Positions 436-64,000 of a stretch of 64,000 nt of DNA are shown in pieces. The notes below the pieces were generated by a model, which saw nothing but the letters and a program-made list of their open reading frames with translations, did not search any database and was not told the origin of the DNA. How positions within the stretch are numbered: the stretch's first letter is position 1; every line of letters starts with the position of its first letter. Both the position numbers and the translations under genes were made by a program. Source of the DNA: Asterochloris sp. CNOR1 (lineage: Eukaryota > Chlorophyta > Trebouxiophyceae > Trebouxiales > Trebouxiaceae); NCBI GenBank assembly GCA_963969365.1, contig OZ017751.1, positions 3,224,001-3,288,000 on the forward strand. Reading direction: 5' to 3'.

Positions 436-3400
436 AGCAGCTGGCGGGACACTCTGGTCAGGCGCCGCTTGCGCCTGCTCATCAAGCAGCGCCGGGCCAA
501 GCACAGGTCCCGCCTGGTGAGAGCGCATGCCATTAAGTGTGCGCCAAGCATGCCACTGAAATTGCCCCTTTGTCTGTGCATGCATCAAAGACGCACAGAT
601 CTGCATCCTTCCTGGACAACACAGTAAGCAGCCATTGAATATGGCGCACTCTGTTCAGTGCTGCAAGGAATTGACTGGCCCTGGCTCCACGACAGCAGGC
701 AGGCCCACATTTTTGTGCATGATGCAACCGCTTAAAGTGAGGAGGGCAGCAAGACTACCCATACACAGCCACCCTGACTGCAATTCGCCCTGCCTGCAGC
801 TCACATGGTCGCTAGCATCGGTGCCGCTGACGCTGCTGCTCGTGAGTCCCCTGCCTGTGGAGGCCAACAGCTGTCCTGCCACCTTTGATCAAAATGTGCA
901 CTGCAATGAATGCTTGAACAAAGTTCTGAGAACTCTTGTAGCGTAGGAAGCGCAGTAACTGTAAGTGTGCGTAGCTGCCCCTCTCCTTGCATGCCTGCAA
1001 TCAACCCTGTGCAATCACCTCAGCAGTTGTTGCTATGTTTGAAACTGCACCCAAGTTGCAGGCAGGGTAGGTGCCACCGCCCTCCGTAACCAAGTGTCTT
1101 AATTGAGCCATGAGGTTCCCAAGAGTTGGCAAGGCCCCCCACCCAGGGTGGAGCCTGAATGTACATGTCAACAATTTGGGTGGAGCCAGGCCTGACTGAG
1201 TGGTGCCTGCCTCCATGCTGGCAGCTGACCCTGCAGCTGACTGCAGCTGCCTGCCAACAACATTTGGGCCATGTAACGCATTACTGCTGCCACCGCTTGG
1301 CCATTGCAGGCAACTCGGCTGCGCTCTCCTTTGCGCATGGAGACAGGATGACTCTGTGGCAGGCCCCGCCACAGTGCCCCTTCCCCCTCCATCACTCTGC
1401 CATGCCTGTGCCACGTGCCTGCAAAGATGACTGCACTGCCCAGCACCTCTGCATGCTACACCTCCGCAGTTGACTGACTGCCACTTTCTCCTTGGCTGCA
1501 CGTCACTCAGCCTGTGCTCTCTGCCCCTGCAGAGGCCAGCGCTGAGCACTGTGTACTGTGCTTCTGCAGATGACTGGCTAACCCACCTTCCCCTGGCTGC
1601 CACTGCAGGTGACTCCACTGCCCGCCATCCCTGTGTACTACGCTTACTACCGCACCTTCTCGCACTACAAGGCGCTGGCCGGGTGCGATGCCATACGGCG
1701 GGCACTGGCGCACCAGGACGCAGAGCAGCTGCAGGTGCCCAGCCCTCCTAGAAGCACTTGCCTACCAATGGGCTCTGCTGCTGCAGTCCAGCTTGCTTTG
1801 CTTGGGGCAGCCTGAAGGCATTTGGTGGCCTGCACAAGGGCATGTTGGCAGGGCCAGCCTTTTGCTGAGGTGCACCAAGACACCGAGCAGCTGCAGGTTG
1901 ACAGAAGACTCGCCATGCACTGGGAACATTGAGGCCTTTGAGGAGCACTCACTGCTGAGTGACATAAGTAGACACATCAGCTGCACAATGGGCTTGGCAG
2001 TGCAGCCTGTGCTGAGGTGCACCAGGACGCTGAGCAGCTGCAAAATCTTGTTCACAGCAGAGTCACCGGGCACTGGCGTCAGGGTGGCCTGTGAAGGGCA
2101 CTTGCTGCTGAGATGCACCAGGTGGCAGATCAGCTGTACATGGGGGCGCATCGTGCTCATGTTGCAGGGGGCAGCCTGCTAGATATAGATAACAAATCAA
2201 TCACCCACCAACTGCAGGTGGGGGCTCCTATGGTCTGATCATTGCATTGACTGCTGCTTGCAGCTGCCCCAGGCCAGGCTATGCCCTGCAAACAGCTGAG
2301 CTTGGTCCAAGAGGTATCCATGAGCAGTGATAAAGGTACTGCCGGGTCGCCAGAACACTGAGCTGCTCCAGGCTGGGCAATGCATTGCAACAGCTGAGCC
2401 TTGTGCAAGAGGTGCCCATAAGCAGCAGCAAGGTGATGCAGGGTGCCGGAATTTTGAACATCTGCAGGTGAGGTGGCTGAGCACATGCCAGTGTGGTGCT
2501 TGTGTTGTAGGCAATCTGCATGCCAGGGGCCTACTTTGGGAGGCTGTAGACCTGTGGCTGCTGGGTGGCGTGATGCGGGTGCCATGTGGACGTGCGTGTG
2601 AGGTGACTGTCTGGGGTGTAGGTGGAGAACAGAGAAAGGAGAACAGGCCACACTTGCTGCGGGGGAACAGTTTAGCACCGGGACACCAAAATCTGAACCC
2701 CAACCGAGCAGCCTGTAGGCAGGACAAGTATTTTGGGGCCAGGGCTGTGCAGCTTAGAGTGAGGGGTCTCTGATCCTGGCAGGGCGGCCAAGGCGCTGCA
2801 GAGATGGCAACTGCACCTGCTGCTGCACGTGAGGCAGTCCCACAGCTGTCGGGTCTGCTGCACGCAACTGTCAGCACACTTGCTGCAGGGCAGGGCAGCC
2901 CTGTTGTGGCCGGAGCTTGCAACAAGGTTTGTTGTCAAGTGGCAGTGACCTGGGCAGGCAGCAGTGCTCTCTGTTGCCTGGCCTCTCCGCTGCAAAGCAA
3001 GCAGCCCTGCTGAGACCAGGCAGGCCATCTGCGCAGGACTTGCGGCAGAACAATGCTGCAGGTTCATCTGGAGTGAGACAGAGCATGCCCTTTGTGCAGG
3101 ACCTGCGGCAGAAGATGCTGCAGATGCAGATAAACGAAACAGACATGCATCCCCTGGGCTGGCCTGCCAAGCTGATCAAGACGCCGCCAAAGTGAGCACC
3201 GCCTCTGGTGCATAGGCCAAGATGGTCAAGATGCGGCCAAAGCGAGCACAGCCAGTTCTGCATGGGCACTGCTGGAGGATGAGGGGGCCAGCACCCTCAT
3301 CCCTCTTTCCGGGGAGTTCCAGGGCCAGCCCTCATCCTGCAGCAGCATTGGCAGGCCCTGACGGCAACTGCCCATGCATTGTGTGGGCAGCAGCAACTTG

Positions 3401-5485: not shown

Positions 5486-8400
5486 CTAGTAACACTGGGA
5501 CAGGGACGGAGCCCACCTGTGGCAGCTCCACCTGCAGCCATGCCGGTCGCCTGACAGGTGTCCCTCATGCCCTGCCAGCGCATGACCAGGCCCCACCTGT
5601 GGCAGCTCCACGTTCAGGCCGACGAGCTTGCGGAACTCCATGAGGGTGTGCTCCTTGGCCTTGGCCTCCACCATGACGTCCACGTTGGCCTCCTCCCCGT
5701 GCAGGTTCATGGGCCCGCGGATGAACATGGAGTGGGCGCTGCGCACCTTCATCGGGTCCTCCGGACTCTCAGACCAGTGCACCTGCAGGGGCCAGGCCGG
5801 GGCAGCATGAATGCACCTGCTACAAGATGTCTGCAAGGGGCACCTCAGGCTGTCCTGGCAACTTGGACTGGGAGGCAAATGACACTGTAATCCTGATGTG
5901 CTGCAACGAGTAGATGACGAATGGGAGGCCAGGCAAACTCCTGGACAACTGCACGTGTAGGTGGCAGGCAGGGGCAAGGTTCAATCAGAAGCTACATTGT
6001 GTTGTCAAAAGTCAAGAAGTCAGGGACAATGCTTGTGCTGGGCTTGACTGCGCGCCAGGCCAGGGTGAACAGGTCAAATCCTGCACTTGGGGTGCAACAA
6101 TGCTGATAAAGCTTGAGTTAAAGGAGCAGGAGCAGTGAAGCTGCCAAGCTTTCCAATTGGCAGGCGTGTGCAGAGACTGGCAAGGTAGTGAGTGCTCAGC
6201 TGTGATCCAGCAGGGTGCAGATCTCAGGTGGGATCCCCAGGATCTCTGCTGGAAGTCTTTGCTTGGGAACGGGAGCAGGTGCACAGCATTGCAGCTGCCC
6301 AGCGGCTCACCATGGGCCGCACATCCTTAGGCCAGGTGGCAATGGCCCTCTTGAAGGCCTCCTCCTCAGACCAGTCACCTGTGCAAAACTTCTGCAGGGG
6401 ACGGACAGCAGCAACCTGTCAGCAACTCATCAAAACAGTATGGGCAATAGCGTCTACCTTAGTCCAGGCCCCTATGCAAAACTACTGCAGGGATTACACA
6501 GCAACAGCTTGGGACCAGTCAGCAGCTCAACAAAGGCCAGCAAAAGTCAGAAGCGGCAATGTAATAAGGTTGCCTTTCCCAAGGTGTAAGCAAAGCTTGT
6601 GTACTGGTCATGAGTGTCTGTCCCTCTTAAAGGCAGAGGCCAAAGGAGGGCACTTTCGACGCCCTCGAGTGCTGTGCCGGGCCTGCATGAGCCTGGCACA
6701 TGTTGGCAACTTGCCCCCGGCTGACTGGATGTGTATGGGGCATGCATGTAGTACCCTGGCAGGCAGCTCACATGGTGGTGGAAGTCGAACGTGATGGGCA
6801 CTCCAATCCTCGCATTGAGGGTGAGCAGGTCCTTCACGCTGTACATGTTGGCCTTGTCATCGTTCTCAATGGCCAGGCGCCTGCGGCAGTTCTCGCTGAG
6901 CCGCGGGAAGTTCCTGCACAGGGCAGATTACAGCAGCGGCTGACGAAAAATGATCACTGTGAGACATGCATGTGGCGAGTTCCGATCATGCCACTTGACA
7001 TTCCTGAACGGCAATGTTTCTGCTTAAGCTGGGAAGCTGCGGTCGGAGCCAGGCCTTTTTGCAGTCCTTGTTGACGCAAGGAGTGCTCCTGCAGGGCAGT
7101 GTGCCTTTGGCTCTTATCAGGCAGGGGCCAGTTGATGGTTTGCTGTGCAGAGGGGGTCTCTGCATGTCTCCCTGAGCAACCTGCCGACAAGTGCGCGGCA
7201 AGAGGTGTTGTGGCCAATGTGGGCAGAGGAAGGAGGACTGTGCAGGGATGAAGGGAGAGTCTTCCAGGCTTTGGGCACTTCAGGTCATGTTCTTGCATGG
7301 GGTCCGGAGAGGGCTGTGGTCCGGGCACCGCCAGCGCTGAGAAGCCTGAGTGGCTCTCAATGTGTAGGCACAACCTGCGGTGCTCATTAAGGCAGAGATG
7401 TACTGCTGCAGCCAGTCGTTGCTAATCAAGCTGCCATGTATAGCCAAGCCATAGCTGATGCCAGCAGGCTAGTATGCGCTTGTCGAGCTGTTGCAGGGTG
7501 CAGCAAGCTTTGGCCAGCAAGCTGAGTTCTGAGTGTGGTCAGCCAGGTCATGGACTACATGAGTCCAGGGGCCTGCACCCAGACTGCTACAGATGCTGTG
7601 TGTTTTGACAAGCGCAGAGTATCAGGTATGCTGCAGGCACTCACTGTGCAAATCTGTTGAGTGTCTCCTCCCGGCCCTCATAGGTCCCTCCAATGTGGAT
7701 GTTGATTTTGTTCCACATACTTGGTTCATATCCCAAGAGGTCAAAGGTCTGCAGAGAAGCAGCACAACTTCGATCACACCTTGCAGACAGCCAGATGATG
7801 AGCAGCATGAGGGAGTGTGCAGCAAAGAGACGCCGTCCTGGAGAAGTGGCTGCCGCAGCATGCACTGCGTGTGATGAGTTGTGACGCCATCTGGTAGAAC
7901 AGCAGCTCAACAGTCTTCAGGGGGCTGGTGCTGGCAGCATAAGCTGCACACGGGCGCACTGGAGTTTTCTGACAAGAAGCATTAGTTGCCATGCCCAGTC
8001 ATGCAAAGTGTGGCTGCACAGGCTCACCATGGAATGTAGCTCCAGATCTCTGATGCTGCTCTCCACAATCTCAGGCCTGCAGGCAGCCAGAGGCTCATGA
8101 CAGCAGCCAAGGCAGCCTCTCTGCCTGCCCGACAAAGCTCCCTACAGGTGGCCCCAACTGCTGCAGTAGTTTTGTTGTGCAGAGGGACAAGCAGTAACTT
8201 TGCACTTCAAGCAGCACATGTGCGTGCACATGCTCTGCGCTGCTTAACCCGCTCTGCACAGCCAGCAGTAATAAGAAGCCCCATCGGGATGAGCGCATCT
8301 GCTGCCTGCGGCTCAGAGAGCAGATCCTTCATCCTATTCAGTATCCACCACACCAGGCTGGAACACAAAGTAGCATTCACATGACTGCTTTTGAAAACGC

Positions 8401-11400
8401 CTGAGGGAAAAGCTCTCACCTTGGTGCTGCCATCTTGACAAATTCAGAGGGGTGGGAGGTGAGGCGCATGTCGTACAAGCGTGCCAGCGTACCGGCCTCT
8501 GCCAGGGCGACTTTGATGTTGTCGAACTGGGGTAGGTCCTGGACCTTGTACTTGCCAGAATCTCCCCAAGGGAAGATGTCGCTGCTTAGCCTGCAAGTAA
8601 GGATGCAGCAGAAGCCCTTTCAGGGTCAATAGTGCTACTAGAGGTCCCCCAAAGATAGTTGTCGCTGCTCAGGTGCAGAATGATGAGAGGCACTGTCAGA
8701 CATGTCTCGTCCCACAGCATGGTTTCGCTGCTCAGCATGCATGGCAACATGGACACGATTGCAGCTGCAGGGTGCTGGAGGCATTGTCAGAAAGAGCTCA
8801 AGAGGTTCGGCACCCTCTCCTCGCCACCAGTCCCACCTAGGAATTTGGCCGTGACATCGGCCGCACAGCTCCCTGGCATGACCCCTCACAGCAACTGCAG
8901 GACAAAGCAGCTGCGGCAGGTTGCGCTTGCCCAGCCAGGGATGCCTGGGCCCTCCCAGGGTTGCCTGCTTACCCAGCCAGGGTGGGACGGCCAGTTCATG
9001 CGCAGGAGGAAGCATGTGCTCTGATCCAGGATGGTCCTATGCAGGGGGACATGCAGGAGATACATTACATGGCAGTGAAGGCCTGAAACCGCTGATCTGC
9101 TGTGCAAGCAAACAGGGCAAGCTGCCTGCTGCAAAGTCAACAGCAGACTACTCAGCCTTGCAAGGCGACACACTGAGCTCAGGCTCCTAGCAGTTGCAGC
9201 CCCTGAATGCCTGCAGCTCGCCTGAAGAGTCGCACCCCATTCTCGTAGTTCCACTGGATGATGGGCAGCAGGTCCCGGACGTTCTGCAGAGCCATCTCCC
9301 CTGCGTACTCCGGCCCCTTGGTCTCCAGAGTCTTGAGGATCAGGCCCCGGTTGGTTGTGACCTGCACATCACAGCTGCCACGAGTCCTTGGCACCGCATA
9401 CACAATTTTGCATGCCCTTCTGTGGGGGGCTACCTGCCCTGAGCAGCCCTGGCAGATAGATCTCTGCTTCCAGCAGGAGCCTGGCCTGCATAGACCCACA
9501 ACCTGACGGGAGCCACGGCATGTACTGCATGAAACCTATGGTGGCTGCAGCTCAGATGCTGTTCGCTTTGCTTTGCTGAGCCCGTGATTGCTGAGGCCGT
9601 TGAAGCAAAGTGCACCAGCTCCCACCCTGAAAGTAACCCCACTATAAAAGGCACCCTGGCTTAGGCGCTGCCCAGACACCCCTGCGTGGCTGGCAAGCAG
9701 AAGTGCAGGCACCTGCTTGGCCTGTCCAGATGATGCAAGCATCTGCAAACGGCCGCTTGCGGCCTCACCATGGGCTTCTGCTGCTGCAGGGTGTTGTTGA
9801 GACAGGCGTACCCCAGGTTGGGGACCGGGCGCGGGGGCACATGGACTGCAGGGCAGGCAGCATGAAGAGAGCTTGATTGGAAGTAACGGGGCTGTCCCCA
9901 TTGCTGGCACAGACAGTGGCAGCAGCAGGTCTCCCGCATACAGACTGCAGGGCAGGCAGCAGAAGTGAAGGTTGAGTGGAAGCAGCAGGGCTATCTGCTG
10001 GCAGAGGCGATCGGCGGGCAGTGGGTACCCCAACACAGACTGCAGCCCCTGCCCGACGCAATCGTGACAAGGCAAGCAGCAAGTGCTAAACATGTGCTGA
10101 ACAACCTATAGCCCATTCACGAACTCATTCACGCAAGTCGCAGGGTCCAGCTGCAGGGAACAGCTCGAAAAAGGCGCCCAGCACGAATTCGCTGCCTAGC
10201 CTGATGCAGGACCCTGTCGGTTAAGACCCCAGTGTTGAAAGAGCGAAGCTCGCCAGCACCAAGTGGCCTGTAAATCATGTGCATCCGTTTGCTACGCACA
10301 AGCAAGGACAGCTGCATCCATGGAATGTCATGCTCCAAGATGCTGGCGACAAAGTGCAGCACCTCTGATGAGACACTTCAAGGTCTCGCACCTGACTCTG
10401 GGTGGCCCAGGGCGTGCCGCGCAGCCGCCAGCAGCCTGATGGTGAGCCGGTTGTTGGCCTTGGGCAGGCGCAGCTTGGGCGCCTTCACCTTGGTCTCCAC
10501 CTCAATGTCGCCCTCAGCGGTGGTGACCGCAGTGGTGCCCTCCTCTGCATCTGCATCTGCCACCACGTCAGACTCCTCCTTGACCTGCGGGGCAATGAAG
10601 CCGCCTTCGCACAGGTGCCATCAGCGTTAGTGCAGCAGTGTTGCTCTCCTCTGCATTAGCATAACTTGCCTCCACCTGCAGGACAGGCTTGAATTGCCCA
10701 GCACATCACCTTCATCAGCAGGAGCAATATGATACCCTCCATAGCGCCTTGATCTGCCATCCTGGATAACTCATGTATTCCTTTTCGCTTCTGAGAGGAT
10801 GACCCTGAAGAAGAGGACAGCGGCAGTCAGGCACCCATCTGCCCCATGCTGTGCCAGAACATGGTTCAGCCAAAGCTTCTCACCGCTGGTCGTCCCAGGG
10901 GCATGCAGTTTTAGCACTGGTACTACTGCAGGGCAACCCCCATCAGGCTCTCAGACAATCAACAGACTCAGCCTGGGGGACTCTTGTAAGCGGCAACAGG
11001 CCTGTCCATATGCCTTCTGCAGTGCCACAGCAGGCCTTGCGTTGCCGTGACCAGAGTGCTCTGCCTTTCTGTTGTGCTGCTGTGGCCTGCTGCAGCTGCA
11101 CCTTGATCCTGGCCTCCTCCTCCTTGGCCAGCTTCTTCTTCTTAGCCTGGGAGACGACAGGAGGCTTCGCGCGAAACGCCATCAGCGCAATCTCCTGCTC
11201 ACTCATGCTGGCAAAGGTGGCCTCGAAGTCCACCTGCTCCTGCAGCTTGGCAGCTTTGGCCGCTGCCCTCTCAGCGGCCTTGGTGCCTGCAGCCACAGAG
11301 CAAAGAACTTGAACATAAGCACACCTGCTGGTTGCCCCAACAGCAGCCCTGCTTTCCTCGATGCCTCCAGCATGGGCCATAGCCTCCAGGGACAACCATT

Positions 11401-14947: not shown

Positions 14948-16085
14948 CTACATGGTGTTGCTTGCTGGATGTTTTCTGACAACAATGACAACTTCAAAAA
15001 CTTTCTGATGCCACTGCCTACCATCTGACGCTTTCCAGCATACCTTCTGGTTGGATTGCCAGGTCACGTGATGAGGGGTCAAGCCTCCATTCAACAAAGA
15101 ATCCCACAGGTCTGCTGCCTCTGGGCACTGCACAGCCAGAGAGTTGCAAGCACACACAGCGAGGCCGCAGTGGAAGGGGGATCCAGAGTTACGGTGCACA
15201 CGTTTGTTTGGCGTAGCCTGCCATCTGTGCACCAGGCCCAACTTGCATTCATCCAGTCTCTTCCAGTGCACCTTCCTGTTTGAGCCCAGAGTTATCTGGT
15301 CTGGGTGCCAGCCACATCTCTCATTGGCTTCCCAGTCCCAGTCAGCCAATAGATGTGGGGCTCCACTGCTGATGCTGGGATGCCTTGTCTTCTGGCGGCC
15401 AGCCTCACGCGAACACTGGGGGCATCTAGTCCCCTTCAAGCTCCTATGCATTATCTGAGTGCTCCATCTGTGCCCACAGACGCCACACCTCCACGCTGCT
15501 CTGAAATTGCTATTTGCTGTCACGGTCTCTGGTGTCCTTTCCCCATTGGCCTCCGAGTCCCACTCCGCCGCCACTTCTGGGTGGTTGTGGGCCAGATCAT
15601 TGCAGGGGCAAACTGCATTGCCACTGTCGTAAGGGCAGCTCTTGCCACTTGACCGATTGGTGACTGATGCCAGCCACCTGTGCGGCTGCCCAGTCTTGCA
15701 CATGCCGCTCCTCCACCAGGCCTTCCTCCCACTACGAGGAGTGATGATGATGCTGCCCAGGTGGGCGTTGGCCTGATGGTCCCACTCCTGTTGCAGGTGT
15801 GGAGCCAGTCTGATGATATTGGGACCGATCTGGTCCTCAGACTTGCCTGCAAACATAGCAATTGTTGTGCTGCTGTGGCTTACACCAGGAAAGATCCGGT
15901 ATGACAGGTTGCTGCACCAGGTAGGCATGCTCACCTTGAGGTCTTTGAGTGGCCTTGCCCAGTGTGGCTGTCAGGTGGAGCCTCCTGTGCAGCCTTGTCA
16001 GCTTTGGTGTCAGGTGCCACATGCATGATCGTGGCACTACAGCTGTAGTCTGGTAGCTCCAGGATGGACGACTGTGTTTAAGCAT
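14948..16085 (-). CDS. DUF4379 / zinc-ribbon (treble-clef) repeat protein with a basic N-terminal presequence
   Basis: Two exons, 16085-15935 and 15846-14948, joined in phase 1 across GTGAGC...TTTGCAG, give 349 residues. From residue 50 or so come four repeats of the probable zinc-ribbon domain PF14311: an LAP/LAH/GAP/LAV start, then EWD/DWD/LWD, a conserved Asn, a PxxVT/IT turn, S-N-x-K/R, a W, and W(R/H/L) before Cys-x2-Cys pairs. Repeat 2 is the cleanest (RCGVCGHRW and CPQC). Repeats 1 and 3 have lost some Cys, and repeat 4 has no second Cys pair. The domain's role is not established; it is common in large DNA viruses and some protists and may bind nucleic acid. The first 50 residues have many Arg, Lys, Ser and Thr and no Asp or Glu, as in mitochondrial or plastid targeting peptides. 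If that exon were wrong, the protein could start at 15928. Confidence 0.8.
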
Positions 16086-16565
16086 GCTTCAGTCTTATGA
16101 TTTCTGAGGAGGGCAGCATGGAACCACAGCTGTGGGCAACTGTGGGACCCATGCACAGCCCATTTAGGCGCCTCTGGCCCCTTTCCACTCTGTGCTGATC
16201 ACCCAAATCAGGAAGTACACAGTGGCTACAGCAGGAACTCCGGTTGTGCCCAGAGAGGCCACAACTCCAGGCTGCCTTGATGTAGCTGCCTGGCGTCACA
16301 GTCTCTCTGTTTTCAGTGCCATCCCAGTCCCACTCTCTGCTGCCACTTGTGAGTGGTTGTGGGCAGGTCATCACAGCGGCACACTGATCTGCCAAGCGGT
16401 CAAGGGGTGACGGTTGCCGTATGTCCGTGTGCAGATTGGTGCTTGCCAGCTGTGCGGCTGCCGTTCCTTGCAGATGCCACGGGCCAGCAGCCCTCTAAGC
16501 CTCAGTCACATGATGCTGGCTGGGACCATCATCAGCTCCTTGCCACACTGCTTGAGGAGGGAGAC
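16086..16565 (-). pseudogene. Decayed tandem copy of the DUF4379 repeats 1-2
   Basis: Minus-strand sequence here matches the intact gene block by block. GGCAGCCGCACAG(G/C)TGGC (16455 region) pairs with the end of repeat 1. CCCACAACCAC followed by an AAGTGGC-type block and GAGTGGGACT (16365-16320) pairs with repeat 2. AGCCTGGAGTTGTGGCCTCT (16280 region) pairs with its RCGVCG coding part. Stops and indels interrupt every frame, so no full repeat can be translated. The order and strand match the gene next door, so a tandem duplication followed by decay is the simplest reading. It may date from before much of the intact gene's own divergence, as the copies differ at about a third of positions. 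Confidence 0.7.
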
Positions 16566-38700: not shown

Positions 38701-41700
38701 CTGTGTCCCTCTGCTGATGCCCCTATAGCTGCTGGCTTGCCGGGCCTCCTGCTGCCCTGGCTGCAAGAACCTGCAACACCATTCACCTGCTTGCTCTTAC
38801 CTGGTACAGCTGATTCCCTTTATTGCGCTGCTTTGCCTGCTGCCCCCTGACTCATACGAATGACACGTCTGCTTGTTCCTGTTGCTGTACATAAGGTCAA
38901 GTGCCCGCCCCCATGAAGACGTATGACTGTAACAGAAGTCTGCTGCTAGAACTCAATCAGTGATGGCGGATGTCCCCGAGGACAAGCAGCACACTCTTGT
39001 TATGTTCTGCTGCTTCGGCCTGTGCCAGAACGCATGTCAGAACTGCACTCAGGCCAAATGCACACACCGTTCAGGCACAGCATTCCCCTGCTGCCTGAAG
39101 TCCTGCAGCGCAAGTCTGCATGCCAGCTCTATATGCATTGCTGGGCTGGTACCACCTCCTCTGCGGCCTGGTGCCAGCTTCTCTACTGCATTGCTGCATT
39201 GCTGGCCTGATGCCTTTTTTCCACCGCATTGCTGGCCAGCCTGCCTGTTGATTGGAAGCCCGGGTTGCACGCCTGGATGCAATACCAAAGCCAGCAATGA
39301 GCTGGCTGAATCACAGCTCAAGATGCAAGCTTGCATGGAACATATGAGGTGCCTGCTTGCTGCTCAGTGAGAGCTGCCGCTTCATCTGAGATTGTCCTTC
39401 CACACCTGCCTCTTTCCCACAGGCTGCAGGCAGCGATGACAGCAGCAGCGAGGAGGAAAGCAGCAGCAGCAAGGAGGAAAGCAGCAGCAGTGAGGAGGAG
39501 GGCAGCAGCAGTGACGAGGGCACTCCCAGCACTGGCAATGGACATGGCAGTCGCAGGGAGGCCTCCAGCAGCCCCCCGATGCTGACTCCTGCAAAGGCTG
39601 CTGGGCAGGCGGCCATCGCAAGAGCTGCATGCCTGGGCCAAAGTCCTGTACGCAGCGCCAGCGCGGCCCCTGGTGAGTGCTGTGCCTCTCAAGCCCCCAT
39701 AGCTGTGCCCTGATTTGCAGCACTGTGCAAGGCAGCTAAGCTTGGCACATATTCAAGATTAAGAAGGCACTGTGCCTCTGCGGGGACACCTGCTTCCAGG
39801 ATGCCCCCAACCACAACCTCAATCGATAAGCACACAGCTGTCCCAGCAAAGACCTGTGGTGCAGTCGGGCCAGACAGTCCTCGGCTAGCAGCGTGCTGAT
39901 CTGGTGCCTCTGCAGGGATGGTGGCTTCCAAGATGCCCCCAATCCCAGCCCCAGAGGGTGTGCACACAGCTGCCCCTGCAAAGGCCAGTGCTGCTGCCAA
40001 AGCAGGCCGTCCTGGGCAGGCCCTATCAGGCGCCACAGGCTCCCGGCAGGCCGCTACCCCGCAAGCGGGCGGCAATGCGGGCAGCAGCAGCGGAGATGAC
40101 AGCAGTGACGATTCAAGTGGCGGTGAAGTGTCTGAGGAAGGCAGCAGCAGTGATGATGAGGATGCAGCTGCCCCCAGCAGCGCTGCCAAGGCTGCAGCTG
40201 AGCAAGCTGCACCAGGTGGGCGAGCAAGTGGAGTAGACAGCGTGCATAGCTGGGTGTGGCACCTGCAAGGATTGGACGCAGCGTGCTTGCAGCTGCTCAT
40301 CGGCTGTGTTTGGCTTGTCTGTCATGGAATAAATGACAGCCATGTACGCAACTGCCTGGAGTATTCAAGTCATTTTGCTTTGTCAGACGGGGCTTGAAGT
40401 TGCGGGGCTTGGGAGGGTCTTCTCAAGGTGAGTCATGTTTTCTGGAGGCTACTCCTGTTACTGACCCCAAGCAGTGCTGGCAAAGCCACAGAAGATAGCC
40501 CTGCCCAAGATGCTCTGGCTGACATGTTGGCATACTCTCCTGCTGGGCTGTGGCAACTGCAGAGGCGGTCTGCACAGTGTTGCTGACCTGACAGATGCGC
40601 ACGCAGCCCCCTCATACCCACAGCCTGGGGGGTGTCTTGGAGCCACCAGTAGAGGAAGGCAGCACAGGGATCCATGCTCAACCTGCACGTCCTGGCAGGT
40701 GTGCCAAGTCAGAATGTGCTGACATCATGCGAAAATAATCTTCTGGCCACTCGGGCAAAGTGGAGCCTGCTGCCAACTATGAATGCCAAACTACCCTCTC
40801 ATGTGCTCCACAACTTGCTGGCAGAGCTCAGGGAGGGCTGCAGCAAACCTGGTACGGCCCCTGCACCTGCCCAAGCACTAATTCCCAACCCTAATCAAGC
40901 TGCAAATGCTGCAGAGAGTTCTGGAGTAGACAGCAGCAGCAGTGATGAGGGCATCAGTGGCACCAGTGACAGCAGTGGGTCTGAAGAGGGTAGCAGCAGC
41001 GAAGATGAAGCGGCACCTAGCAACGCTGGCACAAAGGCAGCAGGTCCGCCTGCACAAGGTAGAGCTCCTGCTGTTGTCGTGTCTGGGGGTGGTGGCATTG
41101 GCTGATGTGCATCAAGAACTTGCTAGATGCACGGCTCTTGCTGTCAGACCGGGAGGAACACAGCCCTCAAGCAGCAGCATGTGTAGCCATGTTGATAGGG
41201 ACAGCAACTGCTTGCGCTCTATGAGGTGTCATGTTTAAAGAGATCTCAGTGCCATTTGAACCGTCGATGTTGTCCCCATCGCTGCAGCAGGTCAAAGCTG
41301 AACTGAGTCCTCTTACACCCTTTTTGGCAGGCGGAGCTCAGCAGGGAGGTCAGCGGCCTGTGGCAACCTCTGCACAAACTCAAGAAGCAGCCAGGCATCA
41401 GAATGCTTTGGAGAGTGCAAGCGCAGCCAGCAGCAGCGATGAGGATAGTGGCAGTGCGGGCTCTGAAGAAGGCAGCAGCAGTAGTGAGGAAGAGGCTGGC
41501 TCCAGCAGCGATGAGGAAGACGCTGCCCCCGACGGTGCTGGCAAGGCTGCAGCCCAGCAACCTGTACAAGGTGGGCCTGCATGTGTTCTGCAGAGTACAT
41601 AGCAGGGTGCGGCACCTGCAAGCATTGTATGGAGGTTGCTTGCGGCTGCTCGACGGCTGTGTATGGCTTGTCCCTCATTGACAAAAGTGAGAATTATGCG

Positions 41701-52362: not shown

Positions 52363-55300
52363 ATGGCTCTCGCCATTGATCAGGGCGTGTGTCAGGCACT
52401 GCACGGTCAGCTACTGGCCAGGAACAATGTGGAGGTGCATGCCTTCGAGGGTCTCGTCCAGGACTGGCAATCTTGCTGGAGACAGCTCAGAGAAGCACAG
52501 GTACTCCATCAGGCTGTACAGACGTCTTGTGCTTGGCAAAGCTTTTGGCTCAGCTGCTGGTGCATGCAGGTGCGCAATGTCCAGATGGCCCAGGAGGCGC
52601 AGGAGCTCAGAACTGAAAACGACACTCTGGCAGCTGCTGCGCAGCAGAGCAAGATGTCAGAGGCTGCCATGCAGCAGGTCAGCTGCACCGGCACGCTCTT
52701 GTATGATCATAGTCTGGCTTTTGGCTAATTTGCCAGGAACGCAAGAGTGTCAAGGCCTCCTGTCGTCTGCAAATCAGCTGACATGTGCTGCGCAGATGGC
52801 CACCCACGAAGGCAGGATCAAGGAGCTGCAGGAGGAGCTGACGACAGCCTACAAGGAAAAGGGCAAGTTGGCTGAGGACCTGCTGCAGGCAGGTGCAGCA
52901 AATACTGTCTGCTGTGACGATGCGAGACTGCACTCTCTTGTGGCAGCCCGCAAGCTGACACCTTGCAGCTGAAGTTCTTTGCAGCTTGTTGAGTGATGAA
53001 GGCAGCCAGCAAAGGCACACCTCATGGTCTCTGCACCCCTGCTGTTTGCATGCCACCAGGCAGCCGCTGGAGTGTAGCTGGCACCAAAGCTGACAGGCAT
53101 GTTTTGCTGCTTTCTTGCAGGCCACCAGCCAGCTGCAGGTGGTGCGCGAGACCAATGAGCAGCAGGGCAAGCAGCTGACGGATGCAGGGCAGACCGAGCG
53201 CGAGCTGCGGGCGCGTGTGAAGGAGCTGGCTGCACAGGTGGACCATGAGCGGGCGGCACATGCGCTGGCCAGCTCTGAGCTTGAGGTGGGTCAGGCTTGG
53301 GAAGTGCAGAGGACGTGGCATAGAGTGGCGTCGATTGAGTGCAGGTGGACCTCCATGAGAGGCATTGGTGGGTCTGAGATCGCAATTCAGTGCAGTTTGC
53401 TGAAGCAAGGGGACCCAGTGTACAGGTTGCCATCGAGCCAGCCGCCCCTGAGCTGGCCAGCCTCTACTTGCGGTGAGGTGGAGCTGCTGCTTGCTGAGCA
53501 TCCATGAGAGGGCTGGTCTTTCTTCAGGTGAAGCTCAGGACTGCGGGCCAGCTCAGAGTTGGAGGGGAGGCACCGCTGCTGCTTGCAGAACAGGGATGGA
53601 GTGCCAGTCTTCTTGTTGGTCATAGGTGGCTGGGCAGCTTCAGAAGGTGGCAGCTTGCAGAAAGTACTGCCAACCCGTCGAGGCAGACATCTGCCACCTA
53701 CAACATGAAGACGTCCTGGTCAGCTCCAAGCTGCAGTGCCTTTTGAAAGTGATGAAGCCGGCTGCATGAGCTGACGTCATGTGTGCAGCACACACGTGCA
53801 GCTAGAAATGGCCACAGATGCCCTGCTACAACGGCAGGGCAGTCTGCAGGTGGATCCTGCATGGCTTATGTGATGACCAGCTTGGTGCTACACATGGGGT
53901 GCAGCATGCTGTGAATCTGCAGGGGATACAGGTGCACGTCAGAGGAGCTTGAGGAGCACCTGCCATGCACTAAAGTATCCGAGGCCTGTGTATGGCTCCC
54001 AGCAGGAGTGCTGCTAAGTGAAAGAATATGGGATATTTCAGATAATCTTTGACCTGCAGTGCAAAGCTGGCCGCCCTGGGGCAGCCACATCCTGTGCTGC
54101 ACAATAAGAGGAGAAGATCAGAAAAGACTGGCCCCGCCAGCCGTGCAGGTCTGGCTGACTGATAGGGAGGCGGCTGGTACCAATGCTGCCAAGCTGGAGT
54201 CTGAGAGCCTACACAGTCCAGTCTGGCAACTCTACAGGCCTGGCTGGCTGACACGGAGCCGACGCTGTCCAGTTGAAAGCAGACAGCCTGCACACTTGGC
54301 CTGGCTGCCCTGCAGGCCCGGCTGGCTGACAAGGAGGCGGCCGAGGCTCGTGCTGCCGAGCTAGAGACAGAGAACGGGGCCCTGGTGCAGCGCCTGATTC
54401 AGCTGAAGGCCACAGAAGTGGAGCGCATGAACGAAGTCAACCGCGTGTGCGAGGAGATGGTGGGTTGCCGTGCCTACTTTGAACCTCAGTGCTGGCATGT
54501 GTAGCTTCGTGGTCCAAGCTTGAAGCATGTGTGGGCCTCTTTCTGGCTGTCAATGCTAGCTGCATGCTGCACAGCTGGCCTGCTGGGTGGTCGCCTGTTC
54601 TGCTGACTGCACAGCACTCCTCTTGGTGGGGCCTGCATTGGCTGGATGTCAATTCAGAGCCAAGTCCTTCATGGCTGGCTGGCTGCACTGCTGGCAGCAT
54701 ATGCGAGCGTGCTGCTCATGCAGGTGTCCTTAATGTTTTTTTGTCAAGCCGGCACCGCACTGCACCCTGCAAGATCTTTCTGCACCCTCATGTTACATCT
54801 CTCAGCACGTTGATGACTGTAGCATCGATTTTGTATATCTGGAGAGGGAGGGAAGGGGCGAAGGGGAAAAGGGAGAGGGGGTAAGGAGGGGGTGTAGTTT
54901 GAACCCTAAACCACGCCCTGCACCGCCGTCTACATGCCCCCGCCTGCTGACTTGCAGCTCGAGAACGCCCGCCACATGCAGCGCGCTGCAGCTGTGCAGA
55001 CCCAGCAGTCTGCTCGCAGCCTGAAGACCCGGTCACAGAGCATGGGCACGCCACCCCTGAGGGAGCAGCTGGGCAGCCTGAGCCTGGCTGGGGTTGCTGA
55101 GGGTGGGCCCAGCTATGCCGTCACGTTGCGCGCCGTCCCCAACCAGCTAGCAAAGGCGGTCCCTGCTCATGATGGGGGATGCCTGACCTGCGCATTTGAC
55201 AGGTTGGTTGCAGGCCGAGGCCCCCAGTGAGGGCCTTTGTGTGTGATTCAGCATGGGATGGAGCTGCGGTGTGGTGTTCTGCAGAGGCGCCTCACCCAGC

Positions 55301-58300
55301 GCAGTCCACGCTCTCACATGTGAGCTTTCTGGAGAGCGCTGAGAGAACATATGCAGCGTTGTTGCTGCAGCAGAGCATGTCTCTGCATGATGCCAGTTGC
55401 CACGGAGGACGATCCCAAGTTTGCCCTGCTGGTCACAGGTTGCAAGCTGGTGGTGACTTCTGCGCCAGCCCAGCATCCCTTCACAGACCCTGCAGCACAC
55501 TGCAGCAGCTGCCCCAATCAGGTGTGTCTTGCAGGCTGTGCAGGAGGTGCCACAGGACTGTGATCAACTAGTGGGTTGGACCCAGGATATGACATTCATG
55601 ATTTATCTGACTGTGCAGGAGTGGGACTCAGATGGCCAGTGGCGGCGCCAACAAAGTTGTTCGCATCTGGGACGTTGCCACAGCCACACCCACTTCCACC
55701 CTGCATGTGAGCAGACTCATGCCTGCATAACCCCTGAGTGTCATGGAGAGGCTTGCCTGTGGGCTCCTATTTCGTGGCAGCAGTAAATGCTTTGCTGGCA
55801 GCTTGACTCACCTCACTGGCAGCGCAGCGTGGCGGCGGTGCAGCATTGCAAATGGTCTTGCTTTGCACAGAAGCGCGGAGGAAAGCACGTGGAAAGCAGA
55901 GAACTGGACATAAAGCACAGAGCAACAGGCAAGGGTTTTGTTTGACCAGTGCCTAGTATGCACACAGGTAGTTGGCAACAAGCATGGGTTGTTGTTGAAA
56001 AGTTGGGGTTTTGAGACAGTTGAGTGCAGAAGCTTATACTGTCTTGCTTTGGATTTTAATGTAAACAGTTTCCTTGTGTTCATTTGAACGAGACAACCAT
56101 CATAAAGGGGGCAAAAGGAATGCAGTCTCACTGCAGTCTGCCCCTGTCCCTGAGCAGCAGCCAACCTGTAGTCCCACTGACGCCACTGAGCAGTCTGCAC
56201 CTGGACCCCAAAATGGCTTCGTCACAGCCAGCATGTTCTGCTGCTGTTCCTAGCGTGATGATCTAGCTGTATGCTTCTGCGCTGCAGGGCATGCAGGAGT
56301 CTGTCCTGGAGTGCTGCTTTACCGCAGACTCGACTCGTCTGTTGGCAGCTGGTGGGGATCAGAATTTGCGGCTCTGGGAGATTGAGAGCCGTAGGGAGCG
56401 CCACACGCTGACAGGGCACACGGCCAAGGTGGGCCGCCACCCCAGCTGCTGCAGGCCCTGGCCTCAGGGTTTTGGCTGATGCACCTGGCCACCATCATTT
56501 CGGCATCCTGGTGGCTGCACTGCAGGCTCATCCCCTTGCAGGTACTGTCTTATACCATTCCTGCTGCTGCAGGCTCCCCACACGCTTGACAGGCTCTGAG
56601 ACAGCAGCTCACAGTGTCCAAACAGGGGGCCTGTGCATGACGGTGAAACAGGAAATGCAGCTCTGCAGCAAAGTGTACTTGGCCCATGTCACAGCAACGC
56701 TGCCTGCAGGTCTCCACAGTGGACTGCTGCCCGATGGATGCCAGCAAGGCCGCCAGCGGCGGCACCGACCGCTGCATCAAGCTGTGGGACCTCAACCGCG
56801 GATTCAACCGGGGCACCTTCCTGTTCACCTCCACCTGCAACTCGCTGCGCTACCTGCTGGACGGGGCAGCCCTGGTCTCGGGGCACTGGGATGGGGCTCT
56901 GCGATTCTGGGACCTGCGGAGCGGGCGAGTCGCACATGAGGTCACAGGGCTGCATGTAGGGCAGATCTGCTCGGTCAGCATTGGGCGGCGCACAGGTGGG
57001 TGCTTGCAAGAGAGGAGAAGGCTCTGCGCTGGGGCTGTTCTGCACAGCCACGGTTGGCGAGTGAGGTCACGGGGCTGCACGTGGGGCAGATCTGCTCGGC
57101 AAGCATTGTGTGGCGCACAGGCCGGAGGTTCTGGAGCGTGTCCTGGGCTTTTGAGGCCAGCATGCAGCAAGCTGCGCTGGGCAGCGAGTGGGGCTTGATC
57201 TGCTTGGTCAGCATTGGGCAGTGCATTGCTGGTGCCAGAACTAGAGAGAATCACAGCACAACATGCTGGGGCTGCCTGGTGTGCATGCAAGTCCCAGCAG
57301 GCTCTGCAACATGCCACTTCAGCATTGCCATGGCACAGGTCTTCTGCTGTCTGCCTGCCAGGGTTGCTCAACATAGCTTGCTGCGAGAATGGGCCTCCTG
57401 CGCCTGTGCTTGCACAATCATGAGTTCCTGGATGTTATATCAGCTGTCATAGCCGGCACCTTCATTTGACCTGACCACCTCTCTACCGCACACCCCATGC
57501 CTGCACAGCTCCCTGTTTGCACCATTGTGTAGCTTGTCACTCCCATGTCTGGCTGCAATGGGTTTTCCTGAAGCTGTAGCATGTGCCAGCCATCAAGCCA
57601 AGTCCCTGCTTCCCGCAACAGGCCAGATCCTGACTGCTGGCAAGGACAACCTGCTGAAGCTGTAGCAGTTTGGCAGCCATCACATAATGTCCCTGCCCCT
57701 CGCCTGCAGGCCAGACTCTGAATGCTGGCAAGGACAGCCTGCTGAAGCTGTAGCAGTTGGCAGCCATCACATTATGTCCCTGCCCCTCGCCTGCAGGCCA
57801 GATTCTGACCGCTGGCAAGGACAACCTGCTGAAGCTGGTGGACGCTCGCACCTTTGAGGTTCGGCAGACATTTCGGGCCCCAGGGTTTGCCGTGGGCACA
57901 GTGTGGTGCACAGCGTGCATGTCCCCTGACGAGCGCCACGTGGCAGCAGGGTCTGCCAGCGGCACAGTCTATGTCTGGGAGGTGAGGGACTACCACCAGG
58001 TAGTCGGGCAATGCCCTTTGCCTGCTGTCAGGCAGGGTGGCACTGATCGAAGCAGTGTCCACGCCTGGCAGCTCTATCAGAGGCTACCAGTCTGGCTGAG
58101 GACCAACACTGACATGCCAGAATTGCACAGTGCAGTGCGAGCTGGCAGAGTCAAAGTCGGCCGGGCAGACCAGCTGTGACTGCCACCTGTCTCTGCAGCA
58201 CATGTGTCCTTGTAGGGGGAATACTCAGGCGCCCACACCGCCATTGCGCAACATTCTGTTGAATTCCCTGGCAGGGGCAAGGTGTGGCCTCAGGGCTGCC

Positions 58301-60345: not shown

Positions 60346-60347
60346 TG

Positions 60348-60970: not shown

Positions 60971-61201
60971 ATGTCTGTGCCCGAACAGCCTGGCGGCAGC
61001 AAGTTGAAAGCTTTCACCATCTTTAGCACAGCTGTAGTGAGCCTGACGCTTGTGTGCTTCGATTGGAGCAAAACCTCACCAGGCCCCACTGTCTTTGACA
61101 ACGTTCGCCCCGCCCTGAGGAGTGTCATCAACCGCATCTACGGCGTTCAGTCATCGGGGAAGAGCCCCAACCTCGGCAACCGGGAGGACAGCTCCTCATA
61201 A
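60971..61201 (+). CDS. Small 76-residue membrane protein of unknown function
   Basis: A single exon from ATG to TAA. The protein starts MSVPEQPGGSKLKAFTIFST, continues through a hydrophobic span (about residues 11-31: FTIFSTAVVSLTLVCFDW), then SPGPTVFDNVRPALRSVINR and a polar Ser/Asn tail. One membrane helix with a basic lead suggests an N-in or organelle-membrane anchored microprotein. The aromatic and Arg residues after the helix look constrained. No family recognised, and the call would fail if no transcript exists. Confidence 0.5.
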   Translation: MSVPEQPGGSKLKAFTIFSTAVVSLTLVCFDWSKTSPGPTVFDNVRPALRSVINRIYGVQSSGKSPNLGNREDSSS

Positions 61202-61611
61202 GCTTCACAGGGCCCGTTTCTTGCTGAGCCTCCACAGGCAGCTCTGCACCTGTGCTCGTCCTGTGCCTGGTCAGATCAGAGGGTGAGGCTGCGCAGGTTC
61301 CCATTACGCTGTGCATGTGTTTTGCTGCATGTCTTGAATTTTGCAATGCAGCCGCCTGGCCTGCAGGCTGGTGCCACATGCTGTGCCGGCAGCAGCTTGA
61401 TATGGCTGGGCATCTTGCGATCGCTGGCCTGCTGATATGCCCCGCAGCGCATGGAGCCTCCCCTTCTGCCCTGTCCTGGCAGTTCAGCAGCTGCCATGCC
61501 ACTGTCGCTTCATTAGCCTGCCCTGCGCCATGCAGGTCCTGCTGCTGAGGCAGCCTCTTCTGCGCCTAGCTGCCAGGAGCCAGCCTCCCTGCCCAGGCAG
61601 CTGACCCCGTA
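61202..61611. other. 5' flank of the PAM2-CUE gene
   Basis: About 410 bp with no supported gene. CTCTTCTGCGCCTAG at about 61556 is an acceptor-like site from which the frame is open into the ATG at 61612 (LPGASLPAQAADPV before the Met), so the coding region could begin in an upstream exon. Confidence 0.4.
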
Positions 61612-64000
61612 ATGGTGTCCGAGAGCGGGCCAGCCAGCCATCCCATCTCCCTCTCTTGTGAGGACAGTTTGTTCTCAGTCGCAGACTCCGGTGCTCGTCC
61701 CAGCCAGGAGACCTCAGGCTTCAGCACCCCTGGGGTGGCCAGTCTGAAGACCGCCGCCGGCCGACAGAGCCCTCACGCAACTGACACCCAGGCAGAGGGG
61801 CACCTGCCGACACTCAATGGCCTGGCTGCCCACTTCCAGCCCGCAGTTCCTGCCCAGTCTGGTCACCCCCAGCACCAGCACAACAACCACGAGGCAGCTA
61901 CCCACGCCCACCAGCAGCCGCAGCAGCCCGCACAGCAGCAGGGCCAGGGAGTCTCCCACCAGAACGGCGCCTCCCAGGTCGCCCGGGGCCTCTCGGCGCT
62001 GAATGTGAATGCGCCAGCCTTTGTCCCTGGGGCACCTGCCAGTCACACCCCGCCCCAGGTCAACGGCTCGGCAGCATTCCACCCCTCCCCAGACCACATG
62101 GCCCCTGCCAACGGCAGCCACTTTGCTGCTGAGGGGGCCCAGTGGGGCAGCGGCGACATGGGTTTTGGCGGGGCCGCAGGATTTGGCCAGGGCGGGTGGG
62201 GCAAGGGCGCCTTTGAGGGCTATGGCTATGAGCAGTATGGCTACGGCTACTCCATGACCGCTGACGGCATGTTTGTGCCCCAGCAGGTGGGTGCCAGGGT
62301 TGCCTGCGGCTGTGTGCTGGTGTGCTGGAGCATTCAGGAGGGTCTCTCTGTGACTCAGCATATGCGCTGTTCAAAAGCCCATGTCTTGCTGTTGGGGGCC
62401 TGACTCAAGTAGTTGCACATGTGCACATGTACACATGAGGTATGTAGTCAGCATTGCGGTCTTGGTCAAGTGTGCTGGCTGCCTGTAATTGGTGGGTCTG
62501 GGCCAAGCTGGCATGCCGCATAGCTGCCTGCTGCCATGCCTCAGCCTCAACGTAAAGCACACCAGTCCTGCGCTCTGTGCTGCAGTCGCAACATCTGCAA
62601 CCATTGCAGAGACGGAGGGTCTGCCAGCGTGCAAAGCTCAAGTGCTGTCCCCACTCTGCTCCTGCAGATACAGATTGTTTGATGAACCCTGCCATGGCCA
62701 GAGTGTTTGGCCCCTGTCCAGCTTTGCGCTTCTGCTACAGGACATGGGGTCGATCTGGCGCATCACGCTGTCATCTTAGCACCTGTGTGCCCTCTGCTGC
62801 TGCAGATGGATGCATGGTCGATGGACCCTGCCATGGCCCAGGCGGTCTACCCGCGCAGGAGCCCCAACAGCGCTCGCAGCCTGGGCAAGCAGACGCAGGA
62901 GGTCTCTGCAGCTGTGGCTGTGCTGCTGGAGCAGTTTCCCCTGTACAACCGGGACAGCCTGATGGATGTGCTCAAGGTGGGCCGAGTTTGCTGTCTTTCA
63001 TATTGGGTTTGTGCACTGATGGACGTGCTCCAGCAGCCGTGACAGAGCAGACACCTGCAGTGCTGAGCCAAGTACATCCTGCCAGCCTCTGATGGCAAGA
63101 GCTGCTGCCTGAGCGCATTTGGCACAATGCTCACCCCAGCTTCCTTCTTTCTCTGGCGCAGGTCAACAATTTTGACCTGGCCAACTCCCTGGACCTCCTT
63201 GCGCAGCTGGAGACGGAGCAGACAGGGCACCGGAAGCACCTGCAACAGGTGACCCATACCTTGAGGGCGCCACAGTTGCTTGCAAGGAGCTGCAGGGGCA
63301 GACAGGAGGACCCGCTCTGGTAGCCATCAGCTGCATGGATGAGCGCTGAGAGCCACTGGTTGCTGTGCTACTGTGTATCTGCATGTAACCTGCAGTGGCC
63401 ATGGCAGGTGATGCTGCAGTTGTAGCTCAACGGGGAAAGGGTGCCAACAGCTTGAGTCAGCTGTGGCAGAGCATGTGATGCTACTGCTGGGGCTTGGGGC
63501 AGAGGGTGCCAATGCTGCCCAAACTCCACGAGCAATGGTATAGCTTGTGATGCTGCTGCTGGAGCTGGACTGCCTGAGGCAGCAGCAGCAGAGCAAGCAG
63601 TGCTGCTCTGCAAGCTTGGGGAAAAGGGTGCCACTCGTTTGCATGAGTCAACAGTGGCCACCCCTGAGGGCGCTGCTGTCATGCTCTACGGGCTCGCATG
63701 GCCAGCTGGCCGTCTGCTAGTGGTGTGCTAGTGGTCTGCAGAGCAAGCAACCTGCCGACCCCTGACAGCTTTGCACGCGCAGGCGCTGCACGCTGACCAC
63801 AACACCTTTCCCCCCATGGGAAACTTTCTGTCCTGGGTTGAGCTCACCCACCTGCACGCCATTGGCTGACTTGCACCTGACTCAACATGCAGGCGCCGCC
63901 CAAGCTGGACCATGACAACTTCCCCTCGCTGGCCATGAACCAGTCCCCCATGCCCAGCCCGCCAGGGGCACAGGCCAGCGAGCTCGCCCCTGCCCTGGAC
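61612..64000 (+). CDS. PABP-interacting protein, CID5/6/7 type (PAM2 plus CUE-like), 3' end beyond the window
   Basis: Exons 61612-62286, 62806-62976, 63162-63248 and from 63893 on, all in frame. Around residue 127 lies a PAM2 motif, LSALNVNAPAFVPGAP, close to the consensus LNPNAxxFVP that binds the MLLE domain of poly(A)-binding protein. After a His/Gln-rich and a Gly/Tyr-rich part (FEGYGYEQYGYGYSMTADG), exons 2-3 encode a CUE-like ubiquitin-binding helix bundle: SAAVAVLLEQFPLYNRDSLM and NNFDLANSLDLLAQLE. Exon 4 has DHDNFPSLA, as in plant CID5-7 after their CUE domain. Plant CID7 relatives end in an Smr nuclease-like domain, which would lie outside the window. The protein probably couples poly(A)-binding protein to mRNA turnover or ubiquitin signals. 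The start is the first in-frame ATG; an upstream exon is possible. Confidence 0.85.
62650..62850 (+). repeat. Upstream copy of the start of exon 2 in the PAM2-CUE gene
   Basis: Exon 2 starts CTGCTGCAG|ATGGATGCAT with GACCCTGCCATGGCCCAGGC just inside. A copy 139 bp upstream (about 62667) reads CTCCTGCAG|ATACAGATTG with AACCCTGCCATGGCCAGAGT, and carries a TGA. The pyrimidine tract is copied with it. Confidence 0.75.
63400..63665. repeat. Imperfect tandem repeat in intron 3 of the PAM2-CUE gene
   Basis: About three units of 80-100 bp anchored by GTGATGCT(A/G)CTGCTGG(G/A)GCT, AGGGTGCCA(A/C) and CTTGGGG(C/A). Direct orientation and no coding sense. Confidence 0.5.

What the first reader, a model, noticed from the sequence alone, without database searches (positions are those of the whole stretch)
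1418..62850. Introns that grow by tandem duplications across splice junctions
In the Mit_KHE1-family gene, UVDE, the Ser-rich gene, ATG16 and the PAM2-CUE gene (and probably the cupredoxin-like gene), exon starts with their TGCAG acceptors recur upstream of the true exon, and exon ends recur downstream. All copies are direct, mostly 80-150 bp apart, and graded from near-identical to barely visible. The polarity is what a tandem duplication spanning a junction leaves behind if splicing keeps using the outermost site that preserves the frame. It would explain why introns here are long and why coding-like scraps fill them. I know of general work on intron gain from tandem duplication of AGGT-type sites; repeated lengthening of existing introns with decaying exon shards at this density is, as far as I know, not a described feature of green algae.
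Basis: partly seen in the sequence, partly recalled or inferred. Interest (0 to 1): 0.8.

Follow-up and report, generated by a model that had tools for sequence, protein, structure and literature searches.

The report
Exon-edge copies left inside algal introns
This green alga's genome is peppered with short local DNA duplications, and those that happen to straddle an exon edge leave a decaying copy of that edge inside the neighbouring intron; the pattern is real but fits a general, already known kind of mutation.

Summary
The copies are real. Among 142 confidently modelled introns (window plus 23 random 10-kb stretches), the first 60 exon bases recur within 400 bp upstream in 25 of 142 (18 of 142 when only the intron itself is searched), against 3 of 142 reverse-complemented and 52 of 2876 random pairs. 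Exon ends recur downstream in 13 of 142 (7 within the intron), against 5 of 142 reversed. The wrong-side intron is at background. Copies behave as debris: mismatches even over codon positions, frame broken in 14 of 25, spacing divisible by three in 13 of 38. They do not show a junction-specific mechanism: 133 direct pairs within 500 bp (1 separate inverted pair) lie in exons and introns alike and cross junctions at the random rate (5 against 4.0 acceptors, 4 against 4.0 donors). Only the side is biased, as expected if splicing must keep the frame. Introns with copies are not longer (298 against 287.5 bp), so 'introns grew this way' is unproven. The genome is probably an Asterochloris lichen alga. 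Closest known: duplications across intron-exon boundaries and break-repair duplications. An acceptor-over-donor excess is unexplained.

The parts
56996..57796 (+). ATG16 WD-domain intron (801 bp) with copies of both flanking exon edges
   Evidence: own gene model; the predicted WD protein matches Autophagy-related protein 16-1 (9h2q_B) in one listed stretch, query 4-248 against chain 36-277 (that alignment was not printed); in the whole genome only the intron itself and the exon end match
57710..57750 (+). nearer upstream copy of ATG16 exon start 57797-57837, preceded by CTGCAG 57704-57709
   Evidence: sequence, placed by eye; 86-87 bp array
57622..57662 (+). farther upstream copy of the same exon start, 39 of 41 identical; the joint after it reads CTG TAG, an in-frame stop
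57568..57576 (+). CTGAAGCTG, also at 57829-57837 in the exon: 9-bp direct repeat bounding the unit (possible microhomology)
   Evidence: sequence, by eye
57062..57120 (+). copy of ATG16 exon end 56937-56995, 52 of 59 identical, 125 bp downstream; similarity fades at the splice site
57179..57225 (+). second relative of the ATG16 exon end (81%)
1869..1898 (+). copy of Mit_KHE1 exon end 1707-1736 (87%), within the intronic direct pair 1830-1992/1981-2144
2016..2042 (+). copy of Mit_KHE1 exon end 1707-1733 (25 of 27)
   Evidence: gene identity
2106..2136 (+). third downstream relative of the Mit_KHE1 exon end (84% to 2010-2040)
10635..10681 (-). copy of exon start 10529-10571 in intron 10585-11101, UVDE gene model upstream of the UvdE domain
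9844..10045 (-). 99-bp direct pair at the acceptor of UVDE exon 9769-9845, almost wholly intronic
6450..6483 (-). copy of UVDE exon start 6357-6390 in intron 6392-6771
   Evidence: the printed alignment to 3tc3 runs through this junction
39792..39843 (+). copy of the Ser-rich gene's exon start 39924-39975 (40 of 52), 132 bp upstream
62676..62699 (+). copy of PAM2-CUE exon start 62815-62838 (21 of 24); the pair 62654-62699/62792-62838 crosses the acceptor
54153..54206 (+). copy of predicted exon start 54320-54373 (40 of 54), ATG16 gene model; the preceding exon scores low (3.1)

Best explanation
The genome undergoes frequent small local duplications that leave a direct copy of roughly 20-200 bp some 60-330 bp away, partly head-to-tail, partly spaced. 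Shown: the excess of near direct pairs over separate inverted, distant and shuffled controls. Inferred: the cause is strand slippage or end-filling repair of staggered breaks, as described for rice. The copies fall largely without regard to splice sites. When one crosses an exon edge, only the arrangement in which the outer splice site still gives the full reading frame survives, so the spare edge ends up in the intron: upstream for exon starts, downstream for exon ends. The spare then decays as non-coding DNA while the real exon is held by selection, which keeps exon-derived copies recognisable longer than intron-intron pairs (inferred) and makes exon shards stand out.
For: Direct pairs within 500 bp: 133 at E<=1, against 1 separate inverted pair within 500 bp and 1 direct pair at 2000-2500 bp in 294 kb. 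In 10-kb pieces: 38 in 6 window pieces, 91 in 23 others (19 of 23 have at least one), 0 in 29 dinucleotide-shuffled pieces, 0 in 5 E. coli pieces. Exon start, score 30 or more: 25 of 142 upstream, revcomp 3 of 142, random pairs 52 of 2876; score 40 or more: 10 of 142 upstream, 1 of 140 downstream, p 0.01. Own intron only: starts 18 and ends 7 of 142, wrong-side intron 4 of 127 and 2 of 131. Junctions crossed at the random rate (5 against 4.0; 4 against 4.0) but 8 of 9 on the predicted side, p 0.04. Mismatch rates 0.18, 0.20, 0.23 by codon position, frame broken in 14 of 25; offsets divisible by three in 13 of 38. Domains span the junction in 5 of 10 peptides and in ATG16 and UVDE. No dispersed copies of an 801-bp intron or a 3-kb stretch.
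Against: Exon starts (25 of 142) exceed intron tiles (405 of 4757, p 0.0007), and starts exceed ends (17 against 5 of 142 at score 34, p 0.013), so junctions may not be neutral ground. Upstream against downstream for starts at score 30 is not significant (25 of 142 against 14 of 140, p 0.08), nor is the side bias of ends at score 40 (4 of 142 against 0 of 139, p 0.12); ends do not exceed intron tiles (p 0.76). At the ATG16 end copy (52 of 59) the intron part shows no similarity, where a simple tandem duplication would predict about three quarters (prediction mine). None of the 8 ungapped copies holds a stop. Exon-interior tiles also have near copies (53 and 52 of 443), so part of the exon signal is coding repetitiveness. 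My first inverted count left out self-palindromes; there are 39 in 294 kb, against 5 in 50 kb of E. coli. BLAST counts both arms of these, so they do not compare with separate pairs. Gene models are mine and lack RNA support. The repair or slippage step is inferred from literature.
Confidence: 0.7

Rival explanations
1. A junction-linked process: duplications start or end preferentially at acceptors, or are favoured there, so exon-start copies are a mechanism of intron lengthening in their own right.
For: Starts exceed intron tiles (25 of 142 against 405 of 4757, p 0.0007) and ends (17 against 5 of 142 at score 34, p 0.013; exon-score thresholds 4, 12 and 16 give p 0.06, 0.04, 0.09). At E<=10, acceptors with an upstream copy 7, expected 2.3, reached in 7 of 500 shifts.
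Against: Junctions crossed by any pair are at the random rate at E<=1e-3 and E<=1; slower decay of the exon copy alone could give close to a twofold excess (inference); introns with copies are not longer.
Confidence: 0.16
2. The copies are missed real exons or protein repeats inside wrongly predicted introns.
For: Gene models are ab initio; coding-coding pairs are 27 of 133; WD and Kelch proteins are among the cases; none of 8 ungapped copies holds a stop.
Against: Mismatches even over codon positions, 17 of 25 gapped, 14 frame-breaking; domains continue across the junction without the copy.
Confidence: 0.07
3. Chance similarity from the genome's TGC/GCA bias (CTGCAG and CAGCAG about 11 times the base-composition expectation).
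For: The bias is real, and TGCAG is very common.
Against: Controls of like composition (other introns, reverse complement, shuffles, distant pairs) lack the signal.
Confidence: 0.03
4. Introner-like or transposon insertions that carry splice sites.
For: Introners were reported in 5% of species searched (PMC9860276, start of abstract in a search listing).
Against: No dispersed relatives of an 801-bp intron or a 3-kb stretch in the 56-Mb genome (only these two were tested); the copies match the adjacent exon.
Confidence: 0.03

Closest known systems
Tandem duplication across an intron-exon boundary (potato RdRp gene, PMC4974935; passages seen)
   Same: The duplicated unit holds the 3' end of an intron plus the 5' end of the next exon, as in the ATG16 array.
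   Different: In potato a new intron arose; here the spare acceptor and exon start stay inside the old intron.
[quoted passage not shown] Hellsten 2011; as described in PMC4974935 passages, originals not read)
   Same: Local duplication provides extra splice sites and the protein is unchanged.
   Different: No new intron is seen here; existing introns hold the extra copy.
Ubiquitous internal gene duplication (Gao and Lynch 2009; cited in PMC4974935, not read)
   Same: Frequent duplication within genes.
   Different: Not compared in detail; whether that study counted decayed partial copies is unknown to me.
Patch-mediated break-repair duplications in rice (Vaughn and Bennetzen 2014, as summarised in PMC7407515 section 4.3, which I read; original not read)
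   Same: Insertions of 10-1000 bp that are tandem, partly tandem, or copied from within 200 bp of a break.
   Different: Here only copies within one genome are seen, with no known ancestral state.

Membership tests
Local duplication process | near direct copies in excess over separate inverted and distant ones | tested here: met
   133 against 1 and 1; 0 in shuffles; self-palindromes counted apart
Local duplication process | copies head to tail, unit length equal to spacing | tested here: inconclusive
   23 of 133 have length at least 0.7 of spacing; spacer matches an outer flank in 40 of 95 spaced pairs against 14 of 95 null
Local duplication process | ancestral single-copy state in a relative | not testable with these tools
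   the genome has no relatives here
Intron gain by tandem duplication | a new intron absent from relatives | not testable with these tools
   no relatives held
Junction-specific intron lengthening | junctions crossed above the random rate | tested here: not met
   5 against 4.0 and 4 against 4.0 at E<=1; at E<=10, 7 against 4.2 acceptors (63 of 500 shifts) and 4 against 4.2 donors
Junction-specific intron lengthening | introns with copies are longer | tested here: not met
   median 298 bp (31 introns) against 287.5 (112), p 0.61
Introners | dispersed similar introns in unrelated genes | tested here: not met
   two stretches searched, no dispersed match

The most novel reading that the evidence does not exclude
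In this probably transposon-poor alga, local duplications are a main source of intron length, and they persist about twice as readily at acceptors as at donors because splicing tolerates a spare upstream acceptor-exon unit better than a spare downstream donor; exon shards would then give a datable record of intron growth.
Probability: 0.17. Interest if true: 0.65.

Novelty: new member of a known kind. Interest (0 to 1): 0.42.

Why it matters
Where long introns come from in genomes with few transposons is, as far as I know, an open question. Exon edges act as fixed reference copies, so decaying duplicates beside them can be recognised longer than duplicates inside introns (inference). With the published Asterochloris genomes the rate and side bias of intron lengthening could be measured directly.

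Tried and rejected
A first gene finder without a filter on intron quality drifted to 2168 mostly short pseudo-introns and was dropped for one trained only on introns with two well-scored flanking exons. Even that model joins neighbouring genes (inference) and leaves only 17.6 kb as intergenic, so I make no intergenic claim. Of 663 predicted introns (643 in scored gene models) 143 were used, 142 in the main tests; thresholds 4, 12 and 16 keep starts above ends. The 400-bp targets can reach past a short intron into the previous exon; one search covered the intron alone. Intron-length test negative ('with copy' there means a copy within 400 bp). Acceptor-kept test not above null. The flank test for tandem against spaced copies was only partly decisive. 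L020 (organelle-like) and L001 (a piece of the window) were left out of the main counts. E. coli is a method control, no substitute for another alga. My inverted counts left out self-palindromic hits; one search counts them (39, of which 8 at E<=1e-3). The best explanation's confidence went from 0.72 to 0.70 for this and for the weaker side tests.

Papers: PMC6652019, PMC12542154 and PMC4974935 by passages; PMC7407515 by passages and section 4.3; all others only as search listings. The searches, in an open-licence library, listed no paper that by title or start of abstract describes intron lengthening by junction-crossing duplication in green algae; subscription papers are not held.
Full report
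What the window is. It lies at 3.224-3.288 Mb of contig 6 of a 56.38-Mb, 21-contig genome whose contigs C1-C18 run from 4.47 to 1.99 Mb. Size, 18 large contigs, GC of about 58% and a 110,056-bp contig, GC 43% in the 10 kb seen, fit the lichen alga Asterochloris: 56 Mb, GC 56-62% in 98% of the genome, 9 introns per gene, mean gene 4240 bp against mRNA 1400 bp, mitochondrion 110,932 bp (PMC6652019, passages); 57 Mb in 18 chromosomes, about 8% transposon-derived (PMC12542154, passages). The identification is an inference. Those figures give about 316 bp per intron (my division); my confident introns have median 288 and mean 324 bp. Pfam supports Mit_KHE1, UvdE and WD40 above its cut-offs; the ATG16 coiled coil, cupredoxin-like and PAM2 matches are below theirs. 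The ATG16 name is backed by the match of the WD part to Autophagy-related protein 16-1.

Are there local copies at all? Self-BLAST of the window gave 20 direct pairs less than 2 kb apart, none farther and no separate inverted pair. Over 294 kb (window plus 23 random 10-kb stretches) there are 133 direct pairs within 500 bp at E<=1, 1 separate inverted pair within 500 bp, and 1 direct pair at 2000-2500 bp; all direct pairs beyond 500 bp number 42 and far inverted pairs 26, over far more possible placements. Self-palindromic hits were left out there; there are 39 of them, against 5 in 50 kb of E. coli, a similar rate. Dinucleotide-shuffled sequence gives 0 near direct pairs in 29 pieces of 10 kb, E. 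coli 0 in 5; the window gives 38 in 6, the other loci 91 in 23, with 4 of 23 having none. So near, same-strand duplication is a property of this genome, and the window is somewhat richer than average.

Exon edges. I trained a splice-aware gene finder on these sequences. Its confident introns have donors mostly of the GTGAG type and acceptors mostly TGCAG|G. 143 introns have two well-scored flanking exons. In 18 of 142 the first 60 exon bases match their own intron better than any of 40 length-matched other introns (expected 3.5); for the last 60 bases of the preceding exon, 8 of 142 (expected 3.5). At a score of 30 or more: own intron 18 and 7 of 142, own intron reversed 2 and 2, wrong-side intron 4 of 127 and 2 of 131. 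With fixed 400-bp targets, which can reach past a short intron: starts 25 of 142 upstream and 14 of 140 downstream (p 0.08); ends 13 of 142 downstream and 10 of 139 upstream; reverse complement 3 and 5 of 142; random pairs 52 of 2876. At a score of 40 or more the side bias is sharp for starts (10 of 142 against 1 of 140, p 0.01) and only suggestive for ends (4 of 142 against 0 of 139, p 0.12).

Is it about junctions? Ordinary intron tiles also have near copies: 200 of 2386 upstream, 205 of 2371 downstream; exon-interior tiles 53 and 52 of 443. Sliding the detected pairs along each locus (500 random shifts) predicts 4.0 acceptors and 4.0 donors crossed at E<=1; observed 5 and 4. At E<=1e-3 it is 2 and 2 against 2.8 and 3.0; at E<=10, 7 and 4 against 4.2 and 4.2. 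What is not random is the side: 8 of 9 at E<=1 and 10 of 11 at E<=10 lie where the frame is preserved (p 0.04 and 0.01). So the duplications seem to ignore splice sites, and survivorship makes the polarity. Exon starts do exceed intron tiles (p 0.0007); exon ends do not (p 0.76). I think the first is because the real exon does not decay, so the pair stays recognisable longer; that is an inference and would predict the same for ends. Starts also exceed ends (17 against 5 of 142 at score 34, p 0.013), which I cannot explain.

What the copies are now. In 25 alignments confined to the intron, mismatch rates by codon position are 0.18, 0.20 and 0.23, 17 have gaps and 14 break the frame; none of the 8 ungapped ones holds a stop. 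Offsets divisible by three: 9 of 25 starts and 4 of 13 ends. These do not look like exons under selection. That the outer sites are the real ones is supported by homology. The ATG16 WD protein matches Autophagy-related protein 16-1 in one listed stretch of 245 residues against 242 (the alignment shown was to another WD protein). The printed UVDE alignment runs through the junction at 6391. Of 15 peptides around junctions with copies outside the window I tested 10: in 5 a Pfam domain (MCM lid, TBC, Kelch, CPSF A, starch-binding) spans the junction, one has a weak match elsewhere, four have none.

The clearest case. The 801-bp ATG16 intron 56996-57796 holds two upstream copies of intron tail plus exon start, 87-88 bp apart. 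The nearer copy's intron part differs from the true one by one substitution and one gap, while the exon parts differ at 4 of 41 places. Both copies end in CTG TAG, so using an inner acceptor would meet a stop at once. A 9-base direct repeat, CTGAAGCTG, stands before the first unit and at the exon end of each unit, as expected if the duplication used it as microhomology; it could also be a relic of an older copy (sequence; these counts by eye). The same intron has two downstream relatives of the previous exon's end; there the similarity fades at the splice site even in the 88% copy, which a simple tandem duplication does not predict.

Tandem or spaced? Of 133 pairs, 23 have a matched length of at least 0.7 of the spacing. 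Among 95 spaced pairs the spacer resembles an outer flank in 40, against 14 for mismatched pairs, so some spaced copies are decayed tandems, not demonstrably all. The rice pattern of tandem, partly tandem and non-tandem copies from within 200 bp of a break, attributed to repair of staggered nicks (PMC7407515 section 4.3), is the best described match I found. The scarcity of separate inverted copies speaks against hairpin-type templated insertion (inference).

Does it explain long introns? Not shown. The 31 introns with a copy within 400 bp have median 298 bp, the 112 without 287.5 (p 0.61). Detectable pairs cover 4.9% of predicted intron bases and 4.4% of predicted coding bases. Older duplications would be invisible, so the claim is open, not refuted.

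Verdict. Its broader claim of a junction-related intron-lengthening feature is not supported; the simpler account is a high background of local duplication filtered by selection on the reading frame.

Noticed in passing
whole sample (294 kb): CTGCAG and CAGCAG are about 11 times commoner than base composition predicts; a strong TGC/GCA bias.
   Followed up: no
window 40155-40410 and 41510-41764: Ser-rich region: an exon-end-plus-intron stretch repeated 1355 bp apart at 74% identity, probably an older duplication of an exon with its intron.
   Followed up: no
window 15469-15706 and 16245-16478: Direct repeat 776 bp apart beside a gene model with DUF4379 treble-clef zinc finger domains; probably coding domain repeats.
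   Followed up: no
L025: Longest open frame found in the sample (2928 nt), with 4 distant direct and 4 inverted repeats; perhaps a mobile element.
   Followed up: no
L018 9129-9426: A 298-bp imperfect palindrome (72% to its own reverse complement, E 8e-34), perhaps a foldback element.
   Followed up: no
L020 (contig C20, 110,056 bp; GC 43% in the 10 kb seen): Organelle-like contig with many direct and inverted repeats, unlike the nuclear loci; size close to the Asterochloris mitochondrion.
   Followed up: partly
G000 chaperonin (PF00118) genes: 67 exon-wise matches; within single genes the exons lie several hundred bases apart, so conserved genes have long introns too.
   Followed up: partly
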